DNA of 64,000 nt from a virus. Of the stretch, positions 6,349-60,691 are shown piece after piece. Both the position numbers and the translations under genes were made by a program. The stretch lies in the IMG/VR virus record IMGVR_UViG_3300012926_000036, positions 1 through 64,000 of that record; one strand, written 5' to 3'. Position 1 is the stretch's first letter. Every line of letters starts with the position of its first letter. The notes under the pieces were generated by a model. The model saw only the letters and a program-made list of their open reading frames with translations, searched no databases and was not told where the DNA came from.

Positions 6349-7200
6349 ATGGCTAATCCCACCGTTACTGCGGCGCCTCCGAACAATGATCAGGCGGCGG
6401 CGATTGATGAAAACCCGTTTACCCAGCAGGCAGCCTCCGAAGCCCGGAAACCCGTTAAGCGCAGCCTTTTAGAATCGGTTATTACCGGCAAGAAAGTTCG
6501 GCCACTTCTTACGGTGTTGTACGGCCCGCCTGGTGTAGGTAAAACCACTTGGGCGTCTAAGGCTCCTAACCCAATTTTTATTCCGACCGAGCGCGGCGTT
6601 GACCAGGTAGGCGCAACCCGGTTCCCGATGCCGGAGACATTTGGCCGGTTCTGTTCGATGGTTCGCGCAGTAGCTAATGAAAATCACGGGTACCAAACAT
6701 TGGTTATCGATACAGCCGATGGTTTAGAAGCGCTTATCTGGGCGGACGTTTGCGAAAACAAGAAAGTTACTTCGATTGAGGAACTTAAATGGGGTGATGG
6801 CTACACGGCAGCTAAAGGCAAATGGCGCCGGCTCTTAAACGAGCTGGTTACGCTTTCAGAACGGATGAATGTCGTTATCCTGGCACACGCGCATATCAAG
6901 ATCTTTAACGACCCAGCGTTACCAGACCCGTACGATATGTGGAAAATTAAGATGCACGATAAAAGCGCGGAGGTGCTACGCGAGTGTGTAGACAACATTT
7001 TATTTGCTTGCCACGAGGTTACGCTGGCAAAGGATAAACCGACTGACGATAAGGGTAAAGGGTTGCACTCCGGTAAACGCATTATTCACACCACGGCCGG
7101 AACCGGGTACGAGGCGAAAAACCGATTTGAACTGGACGATCCGATTGACCTTGAATGGTCGGCGTTAGCGAGCGGTGTACGAGAGTTTTACGGGAAATAA
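6349..7200 (+). CDS. Sak4-like recombination ATPase
   Basis: A 283-residue RecA-fold ATPase of the phage nucleotide-binding type (AAA_24/Sak4). Walker A GPPGVGKTT is at residues 59-67, an IPTERGVDQVG segment follows, Walker B is TLVIDTADG, and the sensor is VVILAHAH. Sak4-like proteins assist single-strand annealing and recombination together with an SSB. The later DUF669-like and nuclease genes are the usual partners. I chose the ATG at 6349 (MANPTVTAAPP) because the in-frame one at 6319 lies inside the previous gene. Confidence 0.85.
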   Translation: MANPTVTAAPPNNDQAAAIDENPFTQQAASEARKPVKRSLLESVITGKKVRPLLTVLYGPPGVGKTTWASKAPNPIFIPTERGVDQVGATRFPMPETFGRFCSMVRAVANENHGYQTLVIDTADGLEALIWADVCENKKVTSIEELKWGDGYTAAKGKWRRLLNELVTLSERMNVVILAHAHIKIFNDPALPDPYDMWKIKMHDKSAEVLRECVDNILFACHEVTLAKDKPTDDKGKGLHSGKRIIHTTAGTGYEAKNRFELDDPIDLEWSALASGVREFYGK

Positions 7201-7212
7201 AGTTTCCAACAC

Positions 7213-7497
7213 GCAGCTGAGCGTAGCCGAGCAGAGCCGAGCCTAGCTTAGTCAAGCCTAGCGCAGCTAAGCGGAGCACAGCATAGCTTAGCATAGAATA
7301 GAATAATCTTGAATACTTTCTTACCACAGTAGAGCGCAGCACAGCTAAGCTTAGCTTAGCGTAGCGTAGCTCAGCGAAGCCAAGCGAAGCCAAGCACAGC
7401 ATAGACCGATATTAAACACTTTTTACCATAGCCCAGCAAAACCGAGCCCAGCGAAGCCAAGTACAGCAAAGCCTAGCGAAGCCTAGCATAGCATAGA
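7213..7497 (+). repeat. Three arrays of a 5-bp NNAGC repeat
   Basis: AGC recurs exactly every 5 bp in three runs: 7215-7297 (about 17 units), 7333-7405 (about 15) and 7430-7497 (about 14). Each run has a few one-base deviations (AGT, AAC, AGA). The phase resets between runs. Every run ends in ATAGA, and each spacer carries a related sequence: GAATACTTTCTTACCAC, TAAACACTTTTTACCAT, and AAATACTTATGATTACCAC over the next gene's start. The two bases before AGC vary freely. The arrays fill the 306-bp gap between the ATPase and the next gene. Confidence 0.95.
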
Positions 7498-7506
7498 CAA
7501 ATACTT

Positions 7507-8127
7507 ATGATTACCACACTTGAAGAACTACAATTAAAAATAACTGGCACACTACCATTATTAATGTGTCGGGGGCAATTGGCTGATCCGTTCGATACGT
7601 ACACTAAAGCCCTTGCAAAGGAAACTTCACTTAAGACCAAAACCGAAGACAACCATCTGGAAATCTCCCGTATAAAATTCTACGGATCATTATATTTCGA
7701 CGATACTATAGGTCCTTTTCTCCCTCCGGATAATTTCTTTAAAGCGTTGCAACAGGCCGCCGCTAAAAAGAAAAAGGCCCAGATCATTAAAAGTTCCGTA
7801 TTGGTCAAGGGTATAGTACACGGGCTACAGGACCCAGCCGCCGCAGAGCTTAAGTACTCAGGGCCTAGGACCATTAAGGAACTCTGGAATAATGGTAACT
7901 CGCCTTTTGTGCATCGGTGTATGGGTAAACCCCCTGGCCAAGGTAAAGTGCTAGTCACGAGGGCGATTTTCCCTATTGGATGGAGCGCGCAATTTTTTCT
8001 TAACTTCGACACCACTTACATAACTAAGGATGAAATTGTAGAGTTCGCCACGTTGGCCGGTAATATCATCGCTATCGGCACATGGCGCCCTAAATTCGGT
8101 CAATTCTCCGTGGAGGTAATTAAGTGA
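7507..8127 (+). CDS. Conserved phage-type protein, 206 aa
   Basis: A soluble 206-residue protein that ends in the pattern GTWRPKFGQFSVEVI. It has a lysine-rich stretch AAAKKKKAQIIKSS and a central RTIKELWNNGNSPFVHR. The closing G(D/T)WRP..G.F.V element recurs in phage proteins of unknown role next to recombination genes, and a nucleic-acid-binding role would fit. Its start codon lies in the sequence that is repeated between the 5-bp arrays, so those arrays form its leader. It overlaps the next gene by 4 bp. Confidence 0.6.
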   Translation: MITTLEELQLKITGTLPLLMCRGQLADPFDTYTKALAKETSLKTKTEDNHLEISRIKFYGSLYFDDTIGPFLPPDNFFKALQQAAAKKKKAQIIKSSVLVKGIVHGLQDPAAAELKYSGPRTIKELWNNGNSPFVHRCMGKPPGQGKVLVTRAIFPIGWSAQFFLNFDTTYITKDEIVEFATLAGNIIAIGTWRPKFGQFSVEVIK

Positions 8128-8567
8128 GTACACAGGTAGTGACGCGCACAGAACTCGTTACGGAAGCGCTGGAGCACATTACTAAAGGAAAGCTTGTTCC
8201 AGGCACATTAATTGAGCTTACTACACTCGAATCTTTACTAGGGGTATCTAGAGACACGCAAGCGTTCGGGTTTATGGTGTCAGAGATCCGCCACTCACTT
8301 TTTGAATTAGGTAAATATTTATCCGGTGAAGGACTCGAACAAAAACAAGCGTACGAGATTTTACATGAGCGAGATAACCACTGGATTGCTAGACTGGCTA
8401 TGGCGAGAATGGATAGAAGCCTATCCGGGATGCAATCTCTTCTATCACACACTGATATCACCTCTTTATCTAAACTAGAACAAGATAGACACGATAATGC
8501 GCTGCGCGAAGTTGCTATGAGGATGCGAGTTTTTAAGTCAGCACAAACTAAGCTTATCCAGGATTAA
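8124..8567 (+). CDS. Hypothetical helical protein, 147 aa
   Basis: A mostly alpha-helical soluble protein that starts at an overlap with the previous stop (GTGAGTACA context). It has a TLESLLGVSRDTQAFGFMV segment that could be a helix-turn-helix, and a long helical C-terminus. The next gene starts on its final base. No family is recognised; a role in the recombination/replication block is inferred from position only. Confidence 0.55.
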   Translation: MSTQVVTRTELVTEALEHITKGKLVPGTLIELTTLESLLGVSRDTQAFGFMVSEIRHSLFELGKYLSGEGLEQKQAYEILHERDNHWIARLAMARMDRSLSGMQSLLSHTDITSLSKLEQDRHDNALREVAMRMRVFKSAQTKLIQD

Positions 8568-12290: not shown

Positions 12291-12374
12291 ATGAGAACCG
12301 CGTTTTACCTCGTAATCTCGTTTCTCGTCCTTTGGATACTAATGGTAGGCTTCGCCTACTGTAGCCTGCATTAG
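12291..12374 (+). CDS. Single-span membrane micro-protein, 27 aa
   Basis: The last rightward ORF starts right after the previous stop (TGAATGAG). It is almost entirely one hydrophobic helix (AFYLVISFLVLWILMVGFAY) with a single arginine at the N-terminus. It ends inside the convergent repeat-protein gene, just before the terminator hairpin. Small single-span phage proteins include holins and regulators; no closer assignment is possible. Confidence 0.4.
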   Translation: MRTAFYLVISFLVLWILMVGFAYCSLH

Positions 12375-13888
12375 ACTGCAACCTTCACGGTTGCAGTTTT
12401 CTGGTCAACGATCGATATCCGCTCAGTTTTCTGGTCAACGATCGATATCTGCTCAGTTTTCTGGTCAACGATCGACGCCAGCGCGGTGTACCCTTGAGTT
12501 GTGCTCATCAGCCGCATACCGGCCCGTGGCCCTTGTGGCGACAAGCTAATGAGGGCGCCTGAATTAACCGCGTGCCCTTGCAAAATCCCGGCGAGTCGCT
12601 TCGTTACACTCAGTAACCCGGACCCGACCATTCGCCCGGTTGCGGTACCGACCAACCGCTTACTTACAACAATCACCCCGGTATCGATTGACCGCGGTTG
12701 ACACGTACCACCGATTAGTTTCGTGGCCAGGAGCGCCCCGCCATTGATGGCCCGCGCGCTGCAAGATCCGCTCAACAATCGCCCGGACCCTAGGGCACCG
12801 GTATTCACCCCGCGCGCCGTCAAACTCCCGGCCAATAGCCGCCCAGAGTTCAACGCGCCAACGTTTACGCCTTTGGGCGTACATGACCCGGCCAACAACT
12901 TGGACGCCTTTAGAACGCCGCTATCAACTGCCTTAGGCGTGCATACGCCGGCCAGATGGATTGCACCACCACTCACCGTAAGCACGCCCGTATTGACCGC
13001 CCGCGCCGTGCACGTTCCAGCGATCGGTTTAGTTGCGGCGAGCGTACCAGAATTAACGCCCTTGGCTGTTACGACTGCTGCGAGTGGCTTAGTTGCGGCG
13101 AGGATTCCTGAATTCGCCGCCCGAGGCGTACAAGTACCGGCCAGAACCCTAACGCTTTGCAGGGTGCCGCTATTCACCCCTTTCGGCGTACACGTTCCAG
13201 TAACACGTTTAGTAGCCGCTAATGCACCGGAATTAACAGCTTTCGGTGTACATGTACCGACTAATATATTAACAACAACTAACGCACCGCTATTAACTCC
13301 TTTCGGTTGGCACGTACCAAGCAGTAATTTACTTGCTGCTAATATCCCTGTATTTACGGCTTTCGGCGTGCTAGTCCCGACGATTAACTTAGTGGCTTTT
13401 AATACCCCGGAGTTAACCGCCTTAGCTTGGCAAGTTCCGCTAAGCGCTAACCCGTTAAGCGCTCCTGAGTTTACCGCTTTAGGTGCGCACGTGCCGGCCA
13501 GCAGCTTTGACGCTTGAAGTATGCCGCTATTCGACGCTTTCGGTTGGCACGTTCCGGATAGCGGCTTGGTTGCCGCCAGTACACCGGTATTAACTCCAGT
13601 AGGTGTACATGTACCGACAAGTAATTTGGAAGCTTTAAAAACCCCTGAATTTACGCCTTTCGGTATACACGTTGCTGACAGTAGCTTAGTTGCTGCCAGA
13701 ACACCGGTATTTACGCCTTTCGGTGCACACGACCCGGCTAACGGCTTAGTTGCAGCCAAGACACCGGTATTTACGCCTTTCGGCTGACACGTACCGGCTA
13801 ACGCGATAGAGCCACCGCCACCAGCGTCATTCCACGTGCGAACGGCATCGTTCCACGTGGTTACCGAGTCATTCCAGGTACCCGCCAT
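12371..13888 (-). CDS. Tandem-repeat virion adhesin or fibre
   Basis: A 505-residue protein built from repeats at three scales. The N-terminus has three TWND(A/S) units followed by a GGGGS hinge. The middle has about 19 units of roughly 20 residues with consensus LAGTCxPKGVNSGxLxATK, each with one Cys and a (V/A)NSG turn. The C-terminus has three copies of an ISIVDQKTE unit. No signal peptide is present. It is the last gene of the leftward late operon, in the fibre cluster, so a repetitive virion fibre is the best guess. Regular Cys spacing suggests a beta-solenoid or strand stack. Confidence 0.65.
   Translation of the reverse strand: MAGTWNDSVTTWNDAVRTWNDAGGGGSIALAGTCQPKGVNTGVLAATKPLAGSCAPKGVNTGVLAATKLLSATCIPKGVNSGVFKASKLLVGTCTPTGVNTGVLAATKPLSGTCQPKASNSGILQASKLLAGTCAPKAVNSGALNGLALSGTCQAKAVNSGVLKATKLIVGTSTPKAVNTGILAASKLLLGTCQPKGVNSGALVVVNILVGTCTPKAVNSGALAATKRVTGTCTPKGVNSGTLQSVRVLAGTCTPRAANSGILAATKPLAAVVTAKGVNSGTLAATKPIAGTCTARAVNTGVLTVSGGAIHLAGVCTPKAVDSGVLKASKLLAGSCTPKGVNVGALNSGRLLAGSLTARGVNTGALGSGRLLSGSCSARAINGGALLATKLIGGTCQPRSIDTGVIVVSKRLVGTATGRMVGSGLLSVTKRLAGILQGHAVNSGALISLSPQGPRAGMRLMSTTQGYTALASIVDQKTEQISIVDQKTERISIVDQKTATVKVAV
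12376..12400 (+). terminator. Rho-independent terminator of rightward block
   Basis: A perfect 8-bp stem (CTGCAACC with GGTTGCAG), loop TTCAC, then TTTT. It starts 2 bp after the last rightward stop. It lies within the final codons of the convergent repeat-protein gene, so its sequence is also coding on the other strand. Confidence 0.75.
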
Positions 13889-43423: not shown

Positions 43424-44797
43424 TTAACTGAAATTCACGAATTCAGGTCTGAAAATGTTCGTTGGTAAATGGACTTGGCCTACTAGTTGGCTATTCCATT
43501 GGCTCGGTTTGCAGACCATCGCCCCGAAAACTGCGTCGGCTCGGTCAGGGGAGGAAACCCCACGCCCGCTTAAATCTTTCTTGCTCTCAATCTTGAGCCG
43601 CTGTTTCTGGTCGTACTCGCGCCGCCGGCTTGTTGCCTGTTCAATGAATGTTTTATCGTCCGGGATAATGATGTGTTGGCCGTTCCCGAGTCCGAACTCG
43701 ATCATGTGCGCAGCTTTGAACCAGATCTCGGACCCGCGATTCGCGTAATGCTCCGCGTCCTCAGACGGTAGACCGTTATTAACCTCGACAACCGGCCATC
43801 CGGCGTCCTTCAGGTTTTTGCACATAACGACCCCAAGGCCGCCAACGTCCGCAAAAATCTCTGAGGCGTGTAACCGGAGCCGTTTAAAGTGTTCAATAAA
43901 TTCGCGGCACGCTTGCGTCGGGTCCGGGTTGCGCCAGGCTGCTATAATCTCGACCTTATTCCCGTCCCGAACCGCAATCACGTTCTCCGCGCCACCAGCC
44001 GCAAAATCGCAAAACGCCGATCGACTCCCACGGTTATGGGTCAGTAATACCTGGCGTTCGAGTGCAGCATTGATTACGCGAAGCGGAATAGCGGCACCCG
44101 TCAAATCCTCAGCAAACTCGCTATCGTGCTTCATCGCGTACACCGCGCGGTCAAGCGTCACCCGATCAATAGAGCGTTGTTCATCGGTAATATGCGGGCA
44201 ATCTGCGCTCTTGACTTTGCACGTCCAAAAGATCGATTTGAACTTGTTGAACGAATGATAGAAAAACCCTTGGGCTGGACAAGCAGACGAAAACTGGCCG
44301 TAAAATGTAGGCGTGCACCGACCTATACCTTGGAATTTTTCATCCGGGATCGCTTTAGCCTCATCAACGATAAACAAGAGCGGTATTCCGGCATCTAGAT
44401 CCTGGTGCCACCCTTCAAGAGAATCAGGTTTATCGGTACTGAATCCGCGCGCAAACCCACCTTGAGGCGTTAGAATCTCGACCCTATTCCATGTCCACCC
44501 CTTGAAATAAGGAAGCCCTCTAAACCGTTCGAGGGATGGCCATACCGCAACCTCGATTTGTTGATATGTCCCGGATGTAACCGCAACACGACCAGCCGGC
44601 CAATTGTACAGGAACGCTAAAATCGCGGATGCTATTACTACGGATGATTTGCCGCCACCATTACAAACCAATGCCGAAACACGTTTGCGCTCTAGCGCAA
44701 TCAAGATCCGCATCTGCCAATCGTACAGCTTCAGCCCGAGATAGGCCGTTGCGAACAAGACAAACGGTACACGCGGTTTAGGGCGATTAAACGTCAT
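43424..44797 (-). CDS. terL: Terminase large subunit
   Basis: A 457-residue terminase. The ATPase has a variant Walker A CNGGGKSS, then a coupling region, and Walker B LLFIVDEAKAI. The C-terminal RNase-H-like nuclease shows Asp residues in FCDFAAGG, IFADVGGLG and the SPDRADAVFGAM signature. Packages DNA into the procapsid through the portal. Its ATG lies in a perfect hairpin (44795-44818). It is the second gene downstream of the relaxase. Confidence 0.85.
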   Translation of the reverse strand: MTFNRPKPRVPFVLFATAYLGLKLYDWQMRILIALERKRVSALVCNGGGKSSVVIASAILAFLYNWPAGRVAVTSGTYQQIEVAVWPSLERFRGLPYFKGWTWNRVEILTPQGGFARGFSTDKPDSLEGWHQDLDAGIPLLFIVDEAKAIPDEKFQGIGRCTPTFYGQFSSACPAQGFFYHSFNKFKSIFWTCKVKSADCPHITDEQRSIDRVTLDRAVYAMKHDSEFAEDLTGAAIPLRVINAALERQVLLTHNRGSRSAFCDFAAGGAENVIAVRDGNKVEIIAAWRNPDPTQACREFIEHFKRLRLHASEIFADVGGLGVVMCKNLKDAGWPVVEVNNGLPSEDAEHYANRGSEIWFKAAHMIEFGLGNGQHIIIPDDKTFIEQATSRRREYDQKQRLKIESKKDLSGRGVSSPDRADAVFGAMVCKPSQWNSQLVGQVHLPTNIFRPEFVNFS

Positions 44798-44818
44798 CTT
44801 TCTTTCAGAAGAAAGATG
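44795..44818 (-). promoter_or_regulatory. Hairpin at terminase start codon
   Basis: A perfect 10-bp inverted repeat (CATCTTTCTT / AAGAAAGATG, 4-nt loop) whose arm includes the terminase start codon. In the leftward mRNA it would hold the ATG in a stem. It could limit translation or be a protein site; no classical Shine-Dalgarno lies within reach outside the stem, though GAAAGA is in it. Confidence 0.6.
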
Positions 44819-44953
44819 GTCCGCGCCCGGTAATTCCGTGCTCTGCGCGTCTGCTTCTAGGAGATCGAGAAAGGCTTACCGGTTAGCGCAGGCGCCAACC
44901 ATTGAGACGCGGTGTACCACGAAATATTGTGGAGCACAATTATTTTCTGCACA

Positions 44954-45310
44954 CTATGGCGTTTTTTGCTCCTCTTTATCCGAGCGCGCATGAAGCGCAA
45001 TTGACGTGATATCTTTTCCGTCAACCCGGACAGCCGACACTTTCCTGGCACATAAATCGTCCCAAAAATCTAGAATACGCGGCCCGGAAATCAGGATTGT
45101 GCCGAACGCGCAATTGATTACTAGCCCGCGTTGATCCGATAAATACACGCTCAACCCTAGGTGATGAAACATGAACCCGTAACAGTTGCCGTCGTCTGCC
45201 CAGAACCGAATAATCTCATATTCGCCAAGGTCCCACGCAGCCGATCGTCGCGGTTTAGCGTACTGTTCGCGGAGCGACGGATACAAAGGTTCAGATGTTG
45301 ATATCGTCAT
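44954..45310 (-). CDS. Hypothetical 118-aa protein at module junction
   Basis: A soluble 118-residue protein: EYEIIRFWADDGNCYGFMF, GLVINCAFGTILISG and LDFWDDLCARKV. It overlaps the relaxase stop by 4 bp and is separated from terminase by 135 bp, so it is coupled to the relaxase. No family is recognised. This gene marks the junction between conjugation and phage blocks. The 135-bp gap after it has only the hairpin noted at the terminase start. Confidence 0.55.
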   Translation of the reverse strand: MTISTSEPLYPSLREQYAKPRRSAAWDLGEYEIIRFWADDGNCYGFMFHHLGLSVYLSDQRGLVINCAFGTILISGPRILDFWDDLCARKVSAVRVDGKDITSIALHARSDKEEQKTP

Positions 45311-48111
45311 CGTTCAATCCCTTGCTCTTTGACAGGCCATCTGTTTTTCGTTGGGTGCGAAAACTGACCAAGTTTATATCCCAGCGCATATTCCCAGACT
45401 GATTTTCGATCCCCTGGTTTAAGTATCTGCTCTTTAAACGCTTCCTTGCAATCTGTATAAAATATCGCGCGGTGCGTTGCGCGACTCGCGAGAACATAAA
45501 ACGTTTTCGCGTCCATCTCAGCGAACGATGAGAGGGGGCACAGCGCCACTACCTGGCGGACAGTGCGGCACTGTGTTGCATAGGATGTCAGGCAAACGCC
45601 CTGATCAATATGCAGAAAATCGCGCGCCATTGAACGGCCATCGTCTAACGTTACCCGATCCGAATCAATGGCCGCAACCTTGGCGATATCGTTGTTCTTA
45701 AACGCTACCCCACGTTCCTTGAATCCATCTGTGATCCGCACCTGATCACCGACGCTGAGTTGCATTTCCGCAATGTCGTACACGTTCCATTTGCCTCTGG
45801 AATCTGGATCAAAGGTTTTTAGCACCCCTCTACGTTCAAGAATAAAATCCCCAAATCCGCGTACGTCTTTAATCACCCATTTCTCACCAGCTTTAAACCC
45901 GCCCTTGACCTTGGTATGAAACACAACGACGCGCCCCGTATGGTAATGCAACGGATCTTTGAGCTCCGGCCCATTAACGTTCACACGCGACAATCGCGTA
46001 ACCATATGATCTTCTTTCTCGATCAACCCTTCGGCCTTTAACGTCTCCCGAATAATCGCCGTTACTTCGCGCGCCTCAGCGTGAACCGGGCTTGCTAAGA
46101 TCGCAAGCTCTCCGACCCGAACCGCCGCCAAGTGCACATCCACCGCCTGCTGACGCATCTCGTGCTGGTCAACGGCCTCACGAATAGCACCATGATTTTC
46201 AAGCCGCGCGTACCCGATCTTGCGCCGGTCACCGCCAGCTTTCAAATCTTCAACCGTTGCTTTTAGATACGCAACCTTTGCCCGGTACGTCTCAGTTAAT
46301 TGCACCGAACGCACCGCCCCAGAGTCCTGCATGATCCGAATTGCGTCACCGCGTTCTGGGCTAACGTGTTGATCCCTGTCACCGCACGTCACGAGCCGAC
46401 ATTTCTTTTCTTTGACGAACGCTACGAGTCGGCACATCTGCGGCACCGACACCATTGACGCCTCGTCTAATACGATCACGGTCCCCGGCGTTATCTGCGC
46501 TCGCCAATCCGAATCAGATTCGAATTTCTGGAGCGTCATAGCTTCCGGAAAATCTTTGTGCAGATTCTTTTCGGAGGCCGAGGTTGGCGCTAAAAGAATG
46601 ACGCCATGGCGATTAGCGCGTAACCCCCATACCGCCTCCCTTAACATTGTCGTCTTACCGGCCCCCGCTATTCCGCTCACGTCCATCACCATGTCACACG
46701 AATTCCAAACAAATCTAACCGCAGACGATTGATCCGGCGATGATCGCACCTGTTGATCTTGAATCTCCCATCCCGGTGCCAAAGCATTCCATAAATTCTG
46801 CTCCAACTTGCACGTCTCAAGCATCCGTTCTTCTTCACGTTTCACGGCTTCCGTCGTCACGTGTCCGTCGTTATCGAGATGAATGAACGCTGGCCCCTTA
46901 ACAAATTCTAACGCTTCATTAAACGTCATCGCCCCACCTGTTGCCCTCAACAGTTGTCCAGCAACGTCCAATTCGTGCACAACGGATGCCTGTTTAAACG
47001 CGGAATAAAGTACTTCTTCTTTTGCTTGGTCCGGTGTTCGCCAGTTGACCCGTGGTGCCGACGTTACCGCGTCCTGTTGCAAACTCGCCCGAATATCCGG
47101 TGTCATTTGCGCCCTCAATTTTTCAAGTTTCTCTTCCATGCTGATTTTTACTTTGCCTTTTGCCAAGCGTTTGCCGAGTTCGTTCCGCACCTCGGTTTTC
47201 ACTCGATCATAATCCAAAGTTTTGCCAAGTTTTGCCGCTGCGCGTATCCGGTACCGCGTTAAAGTTTCAATCCTGTCCCGATTTCCAAGTTCCTCTTTCA
47301 AAATTTCGTTGCGACGTTTGCAGAAAATATCTTTACCTTTAACACTCGTGATTTCGAAGCTGCGACCATCCGGCGTACGCTCGGTACCGATCCCAAGTTT
47401 CGTTAATCCGCGCTCAAGTTCGGACAGGAATAAGGCGTCAATTGTGTCGGCGTGTTTGATTACGTCGTGAAGTTCCACAGCCTTGAGTCGCTTCTCTACC
47501 GAGTCATGCGTCACGTTGAATATGTAATTGTGGCTATGCCAAAGCGGGTCAGGAACGTTACTTCCAATTGGTCTAGCATCCCTGTGAATGACGCTGAAAT
47601 ATAAAATATTCTCCGTACTTCGATCATCATCACGGCCACCGAGACGAATCCGTGTCTTGGCTAACGATTCGGCAAAATCCATTGCATGCTGATTTGCCGC
47701 TACGCAAATCCGCTCAACTGTATCGGAAAATTCTCCCGGATTTTCAGCCATGACCACAGAAAGTGTCTTGGGAACATTGCACACCACGTCCATTCCAGTC
47801 CTGTGATTATCTACTGTCTTTAACTCTTTTTGACCCGTGTTTGCATTCACAATCCACTCTTGTCGTGTGCTATTTGTTCGCGGAGTCAAACGATCTCCTG
47901 TATCCGGATGCACGTTATTCTCAATCGATTTGAATTCTGAAAGTCCGATTTCGCGTTTCGATAAACCCAAGTATTCAAACGCCCTTCCGCGTAAAACCCC
48001 CATTCCGTTCGCGTAATACTGAGATGCTGAAAGATGCTCCGAGAAATATGTAGCTGCCCCACTTGGCCCTACGCCGTTCTTAAATTGTTTGTGGCGAAGC
48101 ATCGGATTCAA
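45307..48111 (-). CDS. MobF relaxase-helicase (TrwC/TraI type)
   Basis: A 934-residue relaxase. The N-terminal domain has the MobF order: early tyrosines (Y32-Y33, near YANGMGVLRG), then H176 (VIHRDAR) and the metal-binding H192-S-H194 (WHSHNYIFNVTHD). The C-terminal domain is a SF1B TrwC/RecD helicase: Walker A GIAGAGKTT (480-488), Walker B VIVLDEA (D549-E550), motifs with VTCGDRDQ and ending SYATQCRTV. It would nick oriT and lead DNA through the type IV system. Upstream a 4-bp overlap ties it to an endonuclease VII-type gene. Confidence 0.9.
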   Translation of the reverse strand: MNPMLRHKQFKNGVGPSGAATYFSEHLSASQYYANGMGVLRGRAFEYLGLSKREIGLSEFKSIENNVHPDTGDRLTPRTNSTRQEWIVNANTGQKELKTVDNHRTGMDVVCNVPKTLSVVMAENPGEFSDTVERICVAANQHAMDFAESLAKTRIRLGGRDDDRSTENILYFSVIHRDARPIGSNVPDPLWHSHNYIFNVTHDSVEKRLKAVELHDVIKHADTIDALFLSELERGLTKLGIGTERTPDGRSFEITSVKGKDIFCKRRNEILKEELGNRDRIETLTRYRIRAAAKLGKTLDYDRVKTEVRNELGKRLAKGKVKISMEEKLEKLRAQMTPDIRASLQQDAVTSAPRVNWRTPDQAKEEVLYSAFKQASVVHELDVAGQLLRATGGAMTFNEALEFVKGPAFIHLDNDGHVTTEAVKREEERMLETCKLEQNLWNALAPGWEIQDQQVRSSPDQSSAVRFVWNSCDMVMDVSGIAGAGKTTMLREAVWGLRANRHGVILLAPTSASEKNLHKDFPEAMTLQKFESDSDWRAQITPGTVIVLDEASMVSVPQMCRLVAFVKEKKCRLVTCGDRDQHVSPERGDAIRIMQDSGAVRSVQLTETYRAKVAYLKATVEDLKAGGDRRKIGYARLENHGAIREAVDQHEMRQQAVDVHLAAVRVGELAILASPVHAEAREVTAIIRETLKAEGLIEKEDHMVTRLSRVNVNGPELKDPLHYHTGRVVVFHTKVKGGFKAGEKWVIKDVRGFGDFILERRGVLKTFDPDSRGKWNVYDIAEMQLSVGDQVRITDGFKERGVAFKNNDIAKVAAIDSDRVTLDDGRSMARDFLHIDQGVCLTSYATQCRTVRQVVALCPLSSFAEMDAKTFYVLASRATHRAIFYTDCKEAFKEQILKPGDRKSVWEYALGYKLGQFSHPTKNRWPVKEQGIER

Positions 48112-48659
48112 TCAATTCTAAAGCTCGTTATTCCCGCCGCTTTCCTTTTTCGAAACTCCAAAGTCAATTCACGGCACTGGTACCACAGTTCGTTTTTCTC
48201 CATGTATTCCAAGACCTTTCTGGCGACATCAATAGAACCCATTTGCCCCTCCACTTTGTTGCACCTCTGGCAAATAACGCCGCGCATATGGTCTCCTTTA
48301 TGGCAATGGTCGATAACTGGCGCAGTGCCCATTGTTCCTCTTCCAATGAACGCGATTCCACAACATTTACACTTCCCTCCCTGCATCTCTATAATCCCAT
48401 CTACAATCTTTGAGCTAATTCCGTACTTGCGCTTGTATGTAGCGTCCCTGTGTTCATCAGCCCTTCCGTGATACCACATCCGGTGACGTTCCCTGTTTTT
48501 ATCTATGTCTTTTTCGTAATATGCCTTTGACCGTGCGCACCAACACGGCTTGCATCTACGCGTTTTGTTGTAGAATTCCTTGACGCTTTTACGGATACCG
48601 CAAACACGACACACCTTTGTTCGTTCTACACCAAGATCCCAATATGTCGCTTCGATCAC
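48108..48659 (-). CDS. Endonuclease VII-family nuclease
   Basis: A 183-residue protein. The N-terminal zinc motif is CRVCGIRKS ... CKPCW. The C-terminal half is the Endonuclease_7 fold: YGISSKIVDGIIEMQGGKC, CCGIAF, then VIDHCHKGDHMRGVICQRCN, with HxH catalytic residues and a CxxC. These enzymes resolve branched DNA. It heads the relaxase cluster, just beside the putative oriT/promoter gap. It may process conjugative or packaging intermediates. Confidence 0.8.
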   Translation of the reverse strand: MIEATYWDLGVERTKVCRVCGIRKSVKEFYNKTRRCKPCWCARSKAYYEKDIDKNRERHRMWYHGRADEHRDATYKRKYGISSKIVDGIIEMQGGKCKCCGIAFIGRGTMGTAPVIDHCHKGDHMRGVICQRCNKVEGQMGSIDVARKVLEYMEKNELWYQCRELTLEFRKRKAAGITSFRID

Positions 48660-48768
48660 CGGTTTTTCTAACGTTCAGATTTTAGGACAAAAAGTCATTA
48701 CCCAGAACTCTCCTTACGCTTCGCGTAAGATTCGAAATACACCTTGACATTATTCCTCTCGAATAGTA
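48660..48768. promoter_or_regulatory. Candidate oriT and divergent promoter
   Basis: The only sizeable gap near the relaxase. It separates divergent genes. It has a perfect 7-bp hairpin with 3-nt loop (CTTACGC TTC GCGTAAG, 48713-48729) and TTGACA (48744-48749) for a rightward promoter, without a convincing -10 box. MobF origins of transfer typically have a hairpin next to the nic site, so this is the best place for oriT. No known nic consensus is visible, so this is inference. Confidence 0.4.
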
Positions 48769-48960
48769 ATGATGTCAAATATGAAACCTCAAAAATACGA
48801 AGTTCTGGTGCCAGGTGATCTCCGGGGAACCAAGGAATGGATCAAATGCAAGATCGCCAGGGAAGTTAATCAAGGATTTTTGCACTATGAACTCAAAGAC
48901 GGAACGAACGGGCTAGCCAAGCCAGGCACTTGGAGATGCTTCGAATTCGGGCGCGTATGA
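48769..48960 (+). CDS. Small protein, 63 aa, opposite to operon
   Basis: A 63-residue protein that can start at any of ATGATG (48769) or the ATG at 48781. It has KYEVLVPGDLRGTKEWIKC and a beta-rich middle, and resembles no family. It lies on the plus strand within the leftward conjugation block, downstream of TTGACA, with an ATGA overlap to the membrane gene that follows. A regulator or entry-exclusion component is possible. Confidence 0.5.
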   Translation: MMSNMKPQKYEVLVPGDLRGTKEWIKCKIAREVNQGFLHYELKDGTNGLAKPGTWRCFEFGRV

Positions 48961-49241
48961 AATCATCAGGTTTTTCGATCACCTTCTGTTTAGCGTGGCT
49001 TATCACGGTTGCTGCCGTGATTATAACGGTCGCAATGTTTGGCGAATCGGCCAAAGGGCCTGCCATCATCATGGCTGCTGAAGTTTTAACCATCGCTTCA
49101 GTAGCGTTGCTGATCATCGTTCCGATGATCCTGTTATCTATGCTGCGCAACACCCGGCGATCAGCCGATTATCTGCAAGAACTTGTTGAACGCCAAATAA
49201 TAAACGGGGCGCCAAAGCCGTCGAGCAAAGTAATTAACTGA
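48957..49241 (+). CDS. Two-span membrane protein, possible exclusion
   Basis: A 94-residue membrane protein with two spans (ITFCLAWLITVAAVIITVAMF; VLTIASVALLIIVPMILLSML) and a polar C-terminus (RRSADYLQELVERQ). I take ATG 48957 (ATGA overlap). It is convergent with the next leftward gene and overlaps it by 8 bp. Small membrane proteins inside conjugation regions are commonly entry-exclusion factors; that is a guess from position. Confidence 0.55.
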   Translation: MKSSGFSITFCLAWLITVAAVIITVAMFGESAKGPAIIMAAEVLTIASVALLIIVPMILLSMLRNTRRSADYLQELVERQIINGAPKPSSKVIN

Positions 49242-49614
49242 CATCAAACCCGTCCCTGTCGCGCCTCGATTTCTGAATCTGGGCGCGGTTTCTTTTTAAG
49301 CGCGCGGTCTGGCGTTCAATCGATGATAATTGCGATTGATTAAACCATTGCGCCATGAGGCCGGAGAATGGTAACCCAATCAACCAAACTAGGCCGCCAA
49401 CAGTCGCCGAGGCTACCAGCATAGGGATCTGCGGCGACTGCAAATACACAAGCTGCGGCAACCAATTGTACACCTGCGCGGCTACGCCGAATAGGATGTA
49501 CGCCAGAAAAGGAACGTTGTTAAGCGCAGCGAAATAGCAGCCAATCGCAACCAGGATCGCCGCGATTGTGATTAGCGAAATGGATTCTTGGATCGGAGTT
49601 TGTTGCTCATTCAC
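49234..49614 (-). CDS. Multi-span membrane protein, T4SS cluster
   Basis: A 126-residue protein that begins with GTG. Three hydrophobic segments: ITIAAILVAIGCYFAALN, FLAYILFGVAAQVYN and MLVASATVGGLVWLIGLPF, followed by a basic, Arg/Gln-rich cytoplasmic tail. It lies two genes downstream of the coupling protein, which lacks an obvious membrane domain, so it may provide that anchor. VirB3-like or other channel subunit roles are possible. Confidence 0.55.
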   Translation of the reverse strand: MNEQQTPIQESISLITIAAILVAIGCYFAALNNVPFLAYILFGVAAQVYNWLPQLVYLQSPQIPMLVASATVGGLVWLIGLPFSGLMAQWFNQSQLSSIERQTARLKRNRAQIQKSRRDRDGFDVS

Positions 49615-49774
49615 TTCGCTTTATCTCCGTTAATTTTTCCTCAAGCAATCTCATTACCGATTCCCTTGACCTTAGGAATTGGCGCGCCAGGATAGCAAGA
49701 TCGTCGTCAGGATCGGCAAAGTTTCGATCTAGAACTTTGTTGGCAATGATTATCGCCTCTTCTAGTTCCGTCAT
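49607..49774 (-). CDS. Small helical protein, 55 aa
   Basis: A 55-residue acidic, helical protein (MTELEEAIIIANKVLDR, then LAILARQFLRSRESVMRLLEEK). Coupled upstream to the coupling protein (ATGA overlap) and overlapping the next gene by 8 bp. No family; possibly an adapter for the coupling protein. Confidence 0.5.
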   Translation of the reverse strand: MTELEEAIIIANKVLDRNFADPDDDLAILARQFLRSRESVMRLLEEKLTEIKRSE

Positions 49775-51186
49775 TGCCTAAACCTCCGAACACACCATCT
49801 TTGGTCACGGTTCCAGAGCCGGCCACTCTGAAACAGGATTCCTTCAACGACGTTGCCGTTCCGCGGCCCACCATTTTTCAGCCCTACAAACTGTTTAGGT
49901 GGACATGAATCCTCTTCCACTTCAGAAACCGAAGCCTGGCTGTTAAACCCCCCGGTTGATTGCACGCTCCCACTCGTTGATAGAGAATGTTTGTACCCAG
50001 TTTCTTTAGCAATGACCCGGCTCGCCCACTCATTCGTGGCAGGGTCACTGTTACGGTGAAATATTTTTGTGGCGTGATTGCCAAGCAAAGTTTCAACCTT
50101 ATTTTTACCGTCTCGTCCATAAGCGTCTAAAAAGTTCGGCAAATTCTGGGTCAGCCGCACAACTGCACACCCTTTTTTCCGGGCCGTAGTAGCCTGGAAT
50201 ACTGCGTCCTGATCGATTGTGAAATAGTGCGCTTCATCTTGCCATAAAAATACTGGACGGCCGTTAGGCGCCACGTATGACCTGCGATCAACGGCCCGCT
50301 GAAACATCTGTGACCAGATTAGTGCCGCAAACTGGCCAACCTCGCGATACCGTGCAACCGGAATATCGATCACAATAACTTTACCGTCGATGATGTCTTG
50401 TGGTGTCAGGTTTGTGCCGGTCCCGAACAGTGCGCCGATCTTGCCACGCGTTAGCGGGTCGAACATCCCGGTAAAATCCGCGTCGATTGTTTCCCGGGTT
50501 TTAGCCGGCATATTGGGCCGTTCAAGTAACCAATAATTGGTTATCAGCTTCCATTCCGGGTGACTCCCGGCTTTTTTATTCCCTTGCTCAAGTAGCCCAA
50601 ACAGGAAACTTTTATCCCGCCAATCGTTAGACTCGGCTTGGTGCGCGTCACGTGGAGCGGATACGATCATCTCGTATAACGTACGTAGCCGGACCGGTTC
50701 ACCGGTCAAAAGAAGGAGCGTAATCGCGTTCCTGAGCAGCTTCTTTTTTTGCGGCAACCAGAAATGCGCCTCAGCACCACTCGCCTCCGTCCGTTTCTGG
50801 ATCGACGCGATATCGACCAGGAGCGTGACTAAATTCTCGGCAAAATCGATACCGCTTGTACGCGATTCGTAATCGAGAAAGTTGAACGTGAACCCGTTAT
50901 CAACACTAAAAAACCGACCATCCTGTTCACGGCCCACGCGGTTAAGGTACCCGCGCCACAGGTTAGCCTCATCGATATCCGAGCACATAACCAGCCCGCC
51001 AAACCCGTTCTCAAGATACTTGAGCGCTAAATGCTTACCGGACCCGGACGTTTTACCGGACCCGAGCTCGCCGAAGATCGCTACGCCTTGCACCGCATCA
51101 CCCAACGTCCAGATATCTTCTCGGCGTTCACTGAATCGCACTAACCTAAGATCGAGCGGCCATTGACCGGTTAAATGTGTTTCCAC
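49771..51186 (-). CDS. virD4: T4SS coupling protein (VirD4/TraD-like)
   Basis: A 471-residue ATPase. Walker A FGELGSGKTS (residues 38-47), Walker B PVFLWQDEAHYF, then LTQNLPNF and a C-terminal SPKQF..L-type region. This is the T4CP family, which passes the relaxosome to the channel. The usual N-terminal transmembrane domain is absent: the ATPase begins by residue 30. The anchor might come from the 126-residue membrane protein two genes downstream. It overlaps its neighbours at both ends. Confidence 0.85.
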   Translation of the reverse strand: METHLTGQWPLDLRLVRFSERREDIWTLGDAVQGVAIFGELGSGKTSGSGKHLALKYLENGFGGLVMCSDIDEANLWRGYLNRVGREQDGRFFSVDNGFTFNFLDYESRTSGIDFAENLVTLLVDIASIQKRTEASGAEAHFWLPQKKKLLRNAITLLLLTGEPVRLRTLYEMIVSAPRDAHQAESNDWRDKSFLFGLLEQGNKKAGSHPEWKLITNYWLLERPNMPAKTRETIDADFTGMFDPLTRGKIGALFGTGTNLTPQDIIDGKVIVIDIPVARYREVGQFAALIWSQMFQRAVDRRSYVAPNGRPVFLWQDEAHYFTIDQDAVFQATTARKKGCAVVRLTQNLPNFLDAYGRDGKNKVETLLGNHATKIFHRNSDPATNEWASRVIAKETGYKHSLSTSGSVQSTGGFNSQASVSEVEEDSCPPKQFVGLKNGGPRNGNVVEGILFQSGRLWNRDQRWCVRRFRQ

Positions 51187-51380
51187 GTTTTTCGATGTTT
51201 GATCAAAAAAATCGCTGTAGGCGTCACCCCGTTTTCGCGCGCAATCTGTTTCGCAGGTTTTCCTAGCGCTAAATCAGCTCTGATTTTCAGGATCTCGTTA
51301 TTTTTAAAGCACGCGCGTGGATTACAAAAGCCTAGCTTCGCTTCGCGCATCCTAGCCCTAGAATCTTCAGTTAAGACCAT
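51171..51380 (-). CDS. HTH DNA-binding protein, 69 aa
   Basis: A small protein with a C-terminal helix-turn-helix (LALGKPAKQIARENGVTPTAIFLIK). I start at ATG 51380, 2 bp after the stop of the AAA gene (an earlier in-frame start lies inside that gene). The N-terminal part is basic and includes ARMREAKLGFCNPRAC. It may control the transfer genes. It overlaps the coupling protein gene by 16 bp. Confidence 0.55.
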   Translation of the reverse strand: MVLTEDSRARMREAKLGFCNPRACFKNNEILKIRADLALGKPAKQIARENGVTPTAIFLIKHRKTWKHI

Positions 51381-51382
51381 AC

Positions 51383-52291
51383 TTATTTCAGAAAACATGC
51401 GTTCGTTCGCGGGTCGTGACATATCGTGCCATTAATCAGTTTTCCACCGTTTAAAAGCATCCCAAAGGCGACCACATCCCCTACAATTCGCATCGCTGCC
51501 GATTGCATCCACGCTGCGCCGAACTGATCTGAGTACCCTTCGTGTTGCACGTATTCGACAACGCTTTGATCCGCCGTAACTACGTGCCCTTGCGCGTTGA
51601 TGATCTCTAAGCATTTATTTACGTGCAAGATTCCGACCTCTTTCAGCGTCTCGAACCCGAGCTTGTTAAACACGGCGTGAAGATCGAACCGTCTAAAAGT
51701 TTCCGGCCGCATCTCAGTTGTACCGGCCTGAATCGTGCGCCGCTTTACGGTTTCGCGGTCGGTTGACCGGCTTTCAATCAGCATCCGGGAACCGATATTC
51801 GTCGTGGCTACGACAACGTAATTGCGTAAATCGATTGTCTGCCCTGTAGCCAGTGTGAACCGGCCTGCTGAAAGAATCTGTAAAAACACGTCGATAATTA
51901 ACGGGTGCGCTTTCTCGATCTCGTCAAAAAGCAGCGTACCCGAACCTCCGGAATGATCGTAATAAACGCCCAAGAGCCCTTGGTCATTCGTGTTCTGGCC
52001 GCGCAATATACCGATCGAATCAACGGTCATGTACTCGCTCATATCGAGCCGAATAAGCTTATCTGACGACCCAAAAAGATGCTCCGTAAAGAGTAAGCAC
52101 GTCTCGGTCTTACCGACCCCGGTAGGCCCGAGAAACAACATCGACGCTACCGGCCGGCCAGGGAACCGCATCCCGAAAAACGAACGTTGCAACAAAGAAA
52201 CGACCTCGGCAATCACCTCAGATTGGCCAAGGATATTCGCGTTTAGAAAATTACTGAGTGTCGTTAACCGCGTTAGGGAATCCGGTATCAT
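51383..52291 (-). CDS. ClpB/ClpA-type AAA ATPase in T4SS cluster
   Basis: A 302-residue protein with one AAA-2 module of the ClpA/B D2 type. It has ILGQSEVI, Walker A LGPTGVGKT (residues 54-62), pore-like SEYMTVDSI, Walker B TLLFDEIEKAHP (D123-E124), sensor VVVATTNIGS, and an arginine finger region (RPETFRRFD). There is no N-domain and no second AAA. It would unfold or remodel a protein, for instance a relaxase, for passage through the T4SS, or act on a pilin. It is embedded in the conjugation operon by 4-bp overlap. Confidence 0.75.
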   Translation of the reverse strand: MIPDSLTRLTTLSNFLNANILGQSEVIAEVVSLLQRSFFGMRFPGRPVASMLFLGPTGVGKTETCLLFTEHLFGSSDKLIRLDMSEYMTVDSIGILRGQNTNDQGLLGVYYDHSGGSGTLLFDEIEKAHPLIIDVFLQILSAGRFTLATGQTIDLRNYVVVATTNIGSRMLIESRSTDRETVKRRTIQAGTTEMRPETFRRFDLHAVFNKLGFETLKEVGILHVNKCLEIINAQGHVVTADQSVVEYVQHEGYSDQFGAAWMQSAAMRIVGDVVAFGMLLNGGKLINGTICHDPRTNACFLK

Positions 52292-52464
52292 CGCTCCATT
52301 TCATCATGACACGGATTACACATAGCCTGCCTGTCAATCATTTCATGGTCGTCTATGGTGCACAGATCCCGGCCGCACCAGTCGCATGTGTTCGCCTCCG
52401 GCAACACGCGATCTAGCTGCGCAGCCACGATTGCCGCGCGGAATTCGTCTGATAATTCACTCAT
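52288..52464 (-). CDS. Small zinc-finger protein (DksA/TraR-like)
   Basis: A 58-residue protein: an N-terminal helix, then TCDWCGRDL ... MCNPCHDEMER. The spacing of the CxxC pairs (18 residues between) resembles the zinc finger of the small TraR/DksA-type regulators that bind RNA polymerase. The N-terminal helical hairpin typical of them is short here. Coupled to the ClpB-like gene. Confidence 0.6.
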   Translation of the reverse strand: MSELSDEFRAAIVAAQLDRVLPEANTCDWCGRDLCTIDDHEMIDRQAMCNPCHDEMER

Positions 52465-52639
52465 TTATTTCTCTTTCCTCTTGCTGCAATCGCTCAGTCA
52501 ACTCGCGCACTTTACGTTGATAATCCAAAATGACTGTCAGGTTCCAAGCCTGGCGTAGTTGTTCATCCGGAAGATTAATTGGACCCTCGCCTCCGAACGG
52601 CTCCGGGATCTCGCCGAGGTTAATAATCTTGCCTTTCAT
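52457..52639 (-). CDS. Hypothetical 60-aa protein
   Basis: I choose ATG 52639, which overlaps the stop of the lipoprotein gene (ATGA). The protein has KIINLGEIPEPFGGEGPINL, then a coiled-coil end (LDYQRKVRELTERLQQEER). It is unclear whether it is a scaffolding peptide. It overlaps the next gene by 8 bp. Confidence 0.5.
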   Translation of the reverse strand: MKGKIINLGEIPEPFGGEGPINLPDEQLRQAWNLTVILDYQRKVRELTERLQQEEREINE

Positions 52640-53262
52640 TTCAAGCCACGCCCCCATTGCGCTAACGGATCACTTAACGGTGTTGCAGACGGTGCCGGGG
52701 TAGCCGTGTGTTGCGGTGCCGACATTGCCGCGTCGAGTTGCCCTTTTAGCTCCGTGATCTGGTCACTCTGCGCCTGGAGCTCGCCCCGCAGGTTATTGTC
52801 GGTCGCAAGCTGCGCATCAACCTTACCCCTGGCCGCGTCGAGCTTGTCCTTGGCTTCGTTTGCCGACGCAACCGCGTCATTGATCCGTTGGTCGCGCGGC
52901 GGAGGTGAATAGGTCGGTGGCGTATACACCGTTTTCGGGCCCGTCGGTTTAAGCCGTCCGGCCGGGGGCAACCGCAGATCGAAGCTCTCGCTCGTGACGA
53001 CCCGGTAGTACCGGTGCGCTTCAGACATGCCACCGTTACCGTCCGGCATCCGGCCTAGGTCGTACGTGTGAACCATGCCAGGCTCGATCACCTTCGCTGT
53101 GAGCTGTTCTGTGCGATCCTTGGTCCCTTTCGGTGTCTTGCGCACATGATGCACAGTAATTGAGCCGTGTTTACCTTTTTCCCAATACGTTTGCTCTTTT
53201 GTGGCGCAGCCGGCCAGTAGCACGGACAAGCTAATAATGAAAGTGTGGCGGTCGATCCTCAT
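52636..53262 (-). CDS. Coiled-coil lipoprotein of the T4SS
   Basis: A 208-residue protein from ATG 53262 (MRIDRHTFIISLSVLLAG), with lipobox LAGC (C19). A beta-rich stretch with TVHHVRKTPKGTKD is followed by a proline-rich and then coiled-coil region (DAVASANEAKDKLDAARGKV) and a C-terminal ATPAPSATPLSDPL tail. The longer upstream start would be inside VirB10. It overlaps VirB10's end by 32 bp. Probably an outer-membrane core partner of the VirB9/10 complex. Confidence 0.65.
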   Translation of the reverse strand: MRIDRHTFIISLSVLLAGCATKEQTYWEKGKHGSITVHHVRKTPKGTKDRTEQLTAKVIEPGMVHTYDLGRMPDGNGGMSEAHRYYRVVTSESFDLRLPPAGRLKPTGPKTVYTPPTYSPPPRDQRINDAVASANEAKDKLDAARGKVDAQLATDNNLRGELQAQSDQITELKGQLDAAMSAPQHTATPAPSATPLSDPLAQWGRGLK

Positions 53263-54358
53263 TTTTTTGTGGTTCCTGGTTATGCGGAAATAGTTCTTTC
53301 TCAAGTTCACGCTCAAGCGATTCCTTTGACTGATTTGGTTGCACCTCAGCCTTTTTATCGACTGATACCCGGCGTGATGGCACGATCTCTTCAGTCGGGA
53401 AAATGTAGAATTCTTTCGAAGCGCGCACCTGAACAAACCGGCCATCACCGGTCTCGCCGTTCAAAAGCTGGTCAAGATACTTGGCAAGAACTGGCGTTGT
53501 ATCCGGTAACCCGATACCAACACCGCCGCTGTGCCCAGACTGTAACGCGCCGCTTGCTGCGGCCGTACCTGCCTGCGTAGTTGCCGTTAAAAGCAGCGCA
53601 ATAAACGCCTTAGCGTTCGCCCAATGGTCCCTCTCAACGATGTCGCCTTGCAACCCGGCTGACCCGTCCTCGGTCCCGAATTGCTGGTTTATCGGGTCGG
53701 CCTCCCGGTCACACGCTATTCCGGTAGCTTTCAAATGGCGCCCATCCGAGAACACGAACAGCCAAGTCCCGGCAACCTCGATCCGGTCACGGACCGCACC
53801 GGACTCGGCAAACGAGCTGACAAGTGTGCCGGCCGGAACGATCAGTTTACCATTCTGGTAAACGTCGCGAATAACCTCACCAACGACCGGGGTGTTGATA
53901 TGGGAACTCTCGACAGTATTGACTAGGGCGCATGGAATAAAGATCGAGGGCGGCAACCAGGACGGTTCACGTTGGCGTTGCGGCTCCGGGGTAGGCGTCG
54001 GGGTAGATTGCACCTGGGCATAGAACGACACGAGCGTAGGCAACGCCTGGGCGCGCGTGTTAACCGTTCCGGGGATCGGTTGCGCGAACGCTGGCGGCTC
54101 CGGGATCGGAGTCGGTAGGGACTTGGCACCAGGGTTTAATTTACGGTTCGATAAGATCGATTCCTTAGCCGCAACCGAGGCGTCAACATCATCTGACGGC
54201 TTAACTTTCCCAAGATCCCGTTGTACCTGCCGTTTCTCGGCTTCCTTGCGCTGTTTATCCTGGCCATGTTTAATGATGCCGCCAATAAAAATAATTAACC
54301 CGACAATAATCAGAATAACACCTTGACCAGTAGTAAAAAATCTTAGAAATCGAATCAT
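53231..54358 (-). CDS. virB10: VirB10/TrbI-like T4SS protein
   Basis: A 375-residue protein: N-terminal single membrane helix (QGVILIIVGLIIFIGGII), proline-rich linker, then the TrbI_VirB10 barrel: VNTVESSHINTPVVGEVI, LIVPAGTLVSSF and AGTAAASGAL. VirB10 bridges inner and outer membranes and responds to energy from ATPases. It lies downstream of VirB9 and a zinc-finger gene, with 4-bp overlaps. Confidence 0.9.
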   Translation of the reverse strand: MIRFLRFFTTGQGVILIIVGLIIFIGGIIKHGQDKQRKEAEKRQVQRDLGKVKPSDDVDASVAAKESILSNRKLNPGAKSLPTPIPEPPAFAQPIPGTVNTRAQALPTLVSFYAQVQSTPTPTPEPQRQREPSWLPPSIFIPCALVNTVESSHINTPVVGEVIRDVYQNGKLIVPAGTLVSSFAESGAVRDRIEVAGTWLFVFSDGRHLKATGIACDREADPINQQFGTEDGSAGLQGDIVERDHWANAKAFIALLLTATTQAGTAAASGALQSGHSGGVGIGLPDTTPVLAKYLDQLLNGETGDGRFVQVRASKEFYIFPTEEIVPSRRVSVDKKAEVQPNQSKESLERELEKELFPHNQEPQKNEDRPPHFHY

Positions 54359-54567
54359 TGCGCCTCTTTCCTTGGTCTGTCAAAACATCCACGACGCCAT
54401 TGCTCTTCATCTCCATAAATTAAATAGCATTCCGGATGAGCAGACTCAGTTCCAGTTATTAAGCCATCTATAAATCCCGTCCACCTGTAGCATGATCCAC
54501 CTTTGGGAATTTTTTCTCCACAGAACGTACATTCAACGTTTGATTTAGTTACGACGATTGCACTCAT
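54355..54567 (-). CDS. Zinc-finger protein, 70 aa
   Basis: A 70-residue protein with CTFCGEKIPKGGSCYRW, then SAHPECYLIYGDEE. The pattern CxxC ... C ... HPEC resembles a LIM/PARP-type single zinc finger found in phages and plasmids. It lies between VirB9 and VirB10 with 4-bp overlaps on both sides, an odd place for a DNA-binding-type protein. Confidence 0.6.
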   Translation of the reverse strand: MSAIVVTKSNVECTFCGEKIPKGGSCYRWTGFIDGLITGTESAHPECYLIYGDEEQWRRGCFDRPRKEAQ

Positions 54568-56451: not shown

Positions 56452-56456
56452 TGTGC

Positions 56457-57137: not shown

Positions 57138-57141
57138 ACTT

Positions 57142-57396: not shown

Positions 57397-57447
57397 TTAG
57401 ACCCTGACTATTCCCTGGGAAACATTGGTATGCAAATAAAAAGATTC

Positions 57448-60506: not shown

Positions 60507-60691
60507 CGTCCAATCTCCGGATGTAATAATACCATTGCGCGCAGCGCTAAATCTTTACACGTTCGTTTAGGATGCATTGGGCTTCCAAGTAAGCTTACAG
60601 CTTTAATGAAGCATTCCAGCTGTTCAATCCTTTCAATATGCATCTTTTGACGCTTTAACGCCTCCTCCATTTTGGGACCATTAATAATCAT
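60503..60691 (-). CDS. Hypothetical 62-aa helical protein
   Basis: A small soluble protein (ALKRQKMHIERIEQLECFIKA, then MHPKRTCKDLALRAMVLL). Overlaps SSB and lipoprotein genes by 4 bp each. No family recognised. Confidence 0.5.
   Translation of the reverse strand: MIINGPKMEEALKRQKMHIERIEQLECFIKAVSLLGSPMHPKRTCKDLALRAMVLLHPEIGR

What the first reader, a model, noticed from the sequence alone, without database searches (positions are those of the whole stretch)
7213..7497. Three arrays of a strict 5-bp NNAGC repeat with shared spacers
AGC recurs every 5 bp for about 17, 15 and 14 units; the two bases in front are free. The phase resets between arrays, but each array ends in ATAGA and each spacer carries a related block (AATACTT..TTACCAC), the last of which includes the next gene's start codon. 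This looks like leader duplication plus a helically phased (half-turn) array. It could bind a cooperative protein such as the SSA/SSB proteins coded nearby, act as an origin or recombination hot spot, or fold as RNA. A period of 5 is unusual for a tandem repeat with free positions.
Basis: seen in the sequence. Interest (0 to 1): 0.8.

Follow-up and report, generated by a model that had tools for sequence, protein, structure and literature searches.

The report
Phage VIPR guide-RNA array with AGC code
The odd five-letter repeat is almost certainly the guide-RNA array of a VIPR system, a recently described phage relative of CRISPR in which only the two free letters of each repeat choose the DNA target; this one uses AGC where the described ones use GGY, and the difference tracks one residue in the RNA-binding loop of its protein.

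Summary
In detail: three (NNAGC)n arrays at window 7213-7492 (16, 15 and 13 units), against at most 3 consecutive units in shuffled sequence. They are neither DNA-phasing nor SSA/SSB sites. The gene right after them (7507-8127) encodes a homologue of the phage SUSP1 Vipr protein (PDB 36pp; profile E=2e-45) with a Cas7/Csm3-like RAMP fold. The next gene (8124-8567) belongs to the accessory (Vap) family found in the same place in other phages. The locus is therefore a VIPR system (Viral Interference Programmable Repeat; preprint PMC13142463): each array is the guide part of a ~100-nt vrRNA, AGC is the protein-bound scaffold and NN carries the target code. Related arrays lie beside vipr homologues in dozens of unrelated phages (72 of 94 protein-sampled loci, always on the vipr sense strand). 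The variation is the triplet: AGY here, GGY in the characterised systems. Across 53 diverse Viprs the triplet's first base tracks one G-loop residue (window T192): D/E in 27 of 28 GGY systems, never in 25 AGY systems; mostly upheld in new sequences. No natural target was found for the three window guides.

The parts
7213..7292 (+). vrRNA 1 guide region, 16 NNAGY units; NN = GC TG GT CG AG CG CT TT CA CT GC TA GG AC AT TT
7293..7325 (+). vrRNA 1 tail, ATAGA...AATACTTTCTTACC
   Evidence: similar to the other two tails; no stable fold
7326..7400 (+). vrRNA 2 guide region, 15 units; NN = AC AG GC AC TA TT TT GT GT TC GA CA GA CA AC
7401..7427 (+). vrRNA 2 tail, ATAGACCGATATTAAACACTTTTTACC
7428..7492 (+). 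vrRNA 3 guide region, 13 units (two with imperfect triplets); NN = AT CC AA CG CC GA CA AC AA CT GA CT AT
7493..7515 (+). vrRNA 3 tail, ATAGACAAATACTTATGATTACC, overlapping the vipr start codon at 7507
7507..8127 (+). vipr: 206-aa RAMP (Cas7-like) guide-RNA-binding protein, PHROG 4652; triplet-specificity candidate T192 in the G-loop
   Evidence: phrog_4652 E=6e-39; profile of its family hits SUSP1 Vipr 36pp E=2e-45; AF2 pLDDT 95.7; Foldseek to Csm3/Cas7 E=1.6e-6
8124..8567 (+). vap: 147-aa accessory protein gene, overlapping the vipr stop by 4 nt
   Evidence: same family as the ORF directly downstream of vipr in phages Mijalis and LESphi2 (E=7e-20; hhalign probability 99.7%)

Best explanation
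The locus is a phage VIPR system. It encodes one RAMP protein (Vipr, 7507-8127), one accessory protein (Vap, 8124-8567) and three tandem vrRNAs upstream. Several Vipr copies would polymerise along the vrRNA, one per pentamer, each gripping an AGC triplet and presenting the next two bases. The row of NN pairs would then pair with double-stranded DNA as NNxNNxNN (one skipped base per pair) and the bound complex would block transcription of a competing phage or mobile element. Shown here: arrays, Vipr homology and fold, Vap homology, sense-strand linkage, conservation across phages. Inferred from the SUSP1 work: transcription and processing of the vrRNAs, binding, the 1-nt skip rule in this AGC class, repression. 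The AGC (rather than GGY) triplet is inferred to be set by the G-loop residue 192 (T here, Asp/Glu in GGY systems).
For: Vipr homology: A1 profile to 36pp 'SUSP1 Vipr protein' E=2.1e-45; fold matches Csm3/Cas7/type VII RAMPs. Array-gene linkage: 33 of 41 viral loci found by DNA pattern alone with degenerate arrays carry a vipr homologue, against 6 of 78 loci with short or simple repeats. Conversely, 72 of 94 loci sampled by protein have AGY or GGY arrays, all 72 on the vipr sense strand, 0 of 282 shuffles. Vap linkage. vrRNA period here 102-113 nt, against ~100-nt vrRNAs with 9-16 units in SUSP1 (PMC13142463). The 1-nt skip rule was seen independently in a related GGY class: the L175 guide matches the vipr gene of L152 at 21 of 22 guide bases with the skip on the codon wobble position, and an L152 guide matches L175 at 20 of 22; skips 0 and 2 gave nothing comparable, and the one skip-3 hit was an array matching a neighbouring array in the same locus. 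Triplet-residue correlation.
Against: No target was found for the window's guides in IMG/VR or in held loci, so the skip rule is untested in the AGC class. The three tails show no stable fold, unlike the structured tail reported for SUSP1. Expression and binding are not testable here. Array 3 has two degraded triplets.
Confidence: 0.93

Rival explanations
1. The array is an autoregulatory mRNA leader: the 206-aa protein (or a TRAP-like ring) binds the AGC repeats in its own 5' UTR to control translation, without RNA-guided DNA targeting.
For: Arrays sit directly before the vipr start codon and the last tail contains it. TRAP also binds short triplets separated by two bases (own knowledge).
Against: In relatives arrays also lie downstream of vipr, between vipr and vap, and before a terminase gene (L098); each array has different hypervariable NN; the homologous SUSP1 vrRNAs are separate ~100-nt guides (PMC13142463); the fold is Cas7-like, not TRAP. 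Autoregulation could exist in addition.
Confidence: 0.04
2. DNA-level site: half-turn-phased binding array or recombination/replication site for Sak4, DUF669 SSB-like or another protein.
For: Sak4, DUF669-like and exonuclease genes flank the locus, and relative L098 has the same neighbourhood.
Against: Linkage is to vipr, not Sak4: most phages with arrays have other neighbours (MakoManhole, Medea1, LESphi2, SUSP1). Strand is fixed relative to vipr, unexpected for a plain dsDNA site. Two triplet classes follow the Vipr tree.
Confidence: 0.02
3. Simple microsatellite expansion without function.
For: Pure pentamer SSRs such as (ACAGC)n do occur in other contigs and genomes.
Against: All 16 NN dinucleotides occur with AGC fixed; shared tails; conservation beside one gene family across phages.
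Confidence: 0.01

Closest known systems
VIPR system of Escherichia phage SUSP1 (Vipr structure PDB 36pp; PMC13142463)
   Same: Homologous Vipr (about 30% identity to SUSP1-clade relatives), homologous downstream accessory gene, several ~100-nt units of pentamer repeats with two hypervariable bases, sense orientation.
   Different: Triplet AGY instead of GGY; G-loop residue T instead of D; all three vrRNAs upstream of vipr (SUSP1 has one upstream and three downstream); short tails without predicted structure; third tail overlaps the vipr start codon.
Class 1 CRISPR RAMPs (Csm3/Cas7, type VII Cas7)
   Same: RRM-like fold with G-loop (Foldseek E about 1e-6).
   Different: Single small RAMP, pentamer guide repeats, no CRISPR repeats/spacers or cas genes; CRISPR guides pair contiguously apart from every sixth base.
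TRAP-binding (G/U)AG leader RNAs
   Same: Triplet repeats with two-base spacers (own knowledge).
   Different: Different protein fold, not conserved with this gene family; NN there is spacer, here hypervariable and array-specific.

Membership tests
VIPR system | Vipr: RAMP homologue with G-loop, in the Vipr clade | tested here: met
   36pp E=2.1e-45 by profile, RAMP fold, G-loop GxGxxRP present
VIPR system | vrRNA of tandem pentamers, conserved triplet alternating with hypervariable NN (GGY/NN or a related consensus) | tested here: met
   Three arrays, AGY/NN. Strict GGY is not met; the preprint allows 'a related consensus' (fig. S17, not readable here; AGC is absent from its main text)
VIPR system | vap gene next to vipr | tested here: met
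   8124-8567 is in the family directly downstream of vipr in SUSP1-clade phage Mijalis
VIPR system | vrRNA transcribed as ~100-nt RNA and bound by Vipr | not testable with these tools
   Unit spacing of 102-113 nt is compatible
VIPR system | NN pairs recognise DNA with a 1-nt skip | tested here: inconclusive
   No target for window guides; the rule is supported in related GGY loci L175/L152
VIPR system | Structured 3' tail (reported for the SUSP1 clade, not for all types) | tested here: not met
   Short related tails, no stable fold. Described for one clade, so treated as a difference rather than as disqualifying
CRISPR-Cas class 1 | CRISPR array and multiple cas genes | tested here: not met
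   Only one RAMP-like gene was recognised among the neighbours tested; no palindromic repeat/spacer array at the locus
TRAP attenuation leader | TRAP-fold protein partner | tested here: not met
   Linked protein has a Cas7-like fold

The most novel reading that the evidence does not exclude
VIPR systems exist in two (or more) orthogonal scaffold codes, AGY and GGY, switched repeatedly in evolution by one G-loop residue: an acidic residue at position 192 (GxG-D/E-xRP) selects guanine as first base of the triplet, and small neutral residues select adenine. The window system is an AGC-coded member whose vrRNAs would not be loaded by GGY-class Viprs and vice versa.
Probability: 0.6. Interest if true: 0.75.

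Novelty: new variant of a known kind. Interest (0 to 1): 0.62.

Why it matters
VIPR was described only in 2026 (a preprint) as a noncontiguous RNA-guided DNA-recognition code thought to predate CRISPR. This locus shows the code in a divergent phage lineage (nearest terminase relatives in Akkermansia phages) with another scaffold triplet. It yields a one-residue hypothesis for how Vipr reads its RNA. If right, the first base of the scaffold could be switched by a single substitution, giving mutually orthogonal programmable DNA binders, and vrRNAs could be classified from the protein sequence alone.

Tried and rejected
(1) Target search with all three guides as 8-unit seeds under the 1-nt skip rule in IMG/VR: every hit matched the rest of the guide only at or near chance; self-targets and held loci likewise. 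(2) search for related loci with broad alignments failed, and with the window protein alone found no close relative. (3) Residues 150 and 21 also separated AGY from GGY in the first set but failed in new sequences, so only 192 is kept. (4) Rfam: nothing in 6900-8200; no hammerhead in 12 AGY loci. (5) Pattern search for AGY arrays in 399 Pseudomonadota genomes gave almost only simple repeats, so it supplied no new AGY test set. (6) No sigma-70 promoter or terminator in the region above the shuffled expectation. (7) Paper supplements could not be opened, so fig. S17 (triplet variants) and the type table were not checked.

Full report
What is there. Window 7213-7515 (+) holds three blocks, each an uninterrupted run of pentamers NNAGC (16, 15 and 13 units; occasional AGT) followed by a 23-33 base tail that begins ATAGA and ends TTACC. 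Chance is excluded: the best chain in shuffled sequence is 3 units. All 16 dinucleotides occur at the NN positions (entropy 3.87 of 4 bits), so this is not a decayed microsatellite. The tails are related to each other, and the third contains the ATG of the next gene. The repeat of the whole unit is 102-113 bases. The window is part of a 66.5-kb virus record.

How it was identified. Many were pure pentamer microsatellites or short matches; 41 had degenerate arrays. Iterating from the 206-aa product of 7507-8127 showed that 33 of those 41 loci carry a homologue (6 of the other 78), although identity to the window protein is only 15-43%. The family is PHROG 4652, unknown function, with no Pfam match for the window protein. 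Its profile hits PDB 36pp, 'SUSP1 Vipr protein', at E=2.1e-45. An AlphaFold2 model (pLDDT 95.7) matches Csm3/Cas7 and type VII RAMPs (36pp does not appear in that library's result, which ends with entries of April 2026). The literature search then found the preprint describing VIPR systems (PMC13142463): a phage RAMP, Vipr, binds ~100-nt vrRNAs with 9-16 pentamers of alternating GGY and NN; NN pairs with double-stranded DNA with one skipped base per unit, and the complex represses competing phages.

Test of linkage in the other direction. Loci sampled by protein, not by array, have AGY or GGY period-5 arrays in 72 of 94 cases, all 72 on the vipr sense strand, against 0 of 282 shuffled loci. 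The sampled set is dominated by one GGY clade and some contigs repeat earlier ones, so this is not an unbiased census. Named phages with the same arrangement include SUSP1, Mijalis, LESphi2, Medea1, Trine, MakoManhole and LittleE.

Accessory gene. The ORF at 8124-8567 overlaps the vipr stop by 4 bases. It and its L098 homologue fall in the family of the ORF that directly follows vipr in Mijalis (SUSP1 clade) and LESphi2 (E=7e-20; hhalign probability 99.7%; 76 of 114 members directly downstream of a vipr). The preprint reports that vap1 of SUSP1 enhances protection. The closest relative of the window system, L098 (43% identity, starred clade), has the same Sak4, DUF669-like and exonuclease genes, vipr and vap, with longer arrays (35, 29, 24 and 31 units) before vipr, between vipr and vap, after vap and before a terminase-like gene.

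Mechanism. Shown: anatomy, homology, fold, strand, conservation. Inferred by homology: one Vipr per pentamer, AGC as scaffold, NN as guide, 1-nt skip, transcriptional repression. An independent check of the skip rule in held sequences worked in a related GGY class: among 113 guides, a guide of L175 matches the vipr gene of L152 at 21 of 22 bases with the skipped base on the wobble position of codons for ATKAHKELTAK, and a guide of L152 matches L175 at 20 of 22, also in codon phase; skips 0 and 2 produced nothing comparable and the single skip-3 hit was an array matching a neighbouring array in its own locus. For the three window guides no target was found; the target is expected in competitors that may not be in the collections.

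The AGC variant. The described consensus is GGY/NN 'or a related consensus'; AGC does not appear in the main text of the preprint, and its supplements could not be read. Over 55 Vipr representatives the triplet class needs 6 changes on the tree (18-19 in shuffles), at least 4 forced by well-supported branches. Of all columns, the one that best separates the classes is window residue 192, inside the G-loop GxG-X-xRP: A/G/T/N/C/S in 25 of 25 AGY systems, D/E in 27 of 28 GGY systems. The exception, L035, has T and a partly mixed GGC/AGC array. In sequences not used to find the rule, all 24 GGY systems with detectable arrays are acidic there (several are near-identical to each other), and the two new AGY systems that are distant from the training set (L031, L083; 39-40% identity, nearest to GGY members) are non-acidic. 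Two Vibrio-type phages (L272, L273) and L110 are acidic and carry GCA or, read on the vipr sense strand, GCT triplets, which also begin with G; this reading is post hoc, and L110 counts as an exception if its array is read on the other strand. Residues 150 and 21 did not survive the same test. Causality is not shown, and the non-acidic direction rests on only two new distant cases.

Limits. The AGY set was found with an AGC pattern, so class frequencies mean nothing. RNA expression, binding and repression need experiments. The type (I-VII) was not assigned because the type table is in the supplements.

Noticed in passing
window 44000-64000 with 12000-44000: The record joins tail/terminase-type phage genes (terminase-like 43424-44797, nearest in Akkermansia phages) with what look like conjugation genes: a TraI/MobF-like relaxase (45307-48111, similar to MobF of Planctomycetes and Runella plasmids) and ORFs that read like coupling-protein and T4SS genes (from sequence only). 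It may be a phage-plasmid or conjugative hybrid.
   Followed up: partly
L152:3082 and L175:5178: Two phages each carry a vrRNA guide matching the other under the 1-nt skip rule; one of the hits is inside the rival's vipr gene.
   Followed up: partly
L262 3189-3260, L264 3700-3990 (actinophages Trine, LittleE): The tails after GGY arrays contain GGTTCGANTCC-like stretches resembling a tRNA T-arm; vrRNA tails may borrow tRNA processing. ARAGORN gave one odd tRNA call in L262.
   Followed up: partly
L272 3140-3400, L273: Vibrio-type phages (phiHSIC, 1.266.O) have GCA/NN arrays beside vipr, a third triplet class.
   Followed up: partly
L029 (69 units), L098 (35 units), L059 (44 units): Very long uninterrupted AGC/NN arrays without tails, far beyond the 9-16 units reported; possibly overlapping or staggered vrRNAs.
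   Followed up: no
window 12371-13888: 505-aa ORF of repeated GTCxPKxVNSG units, a repetitive protein in the phage structural region (DNA repeats).
   Followed up: no
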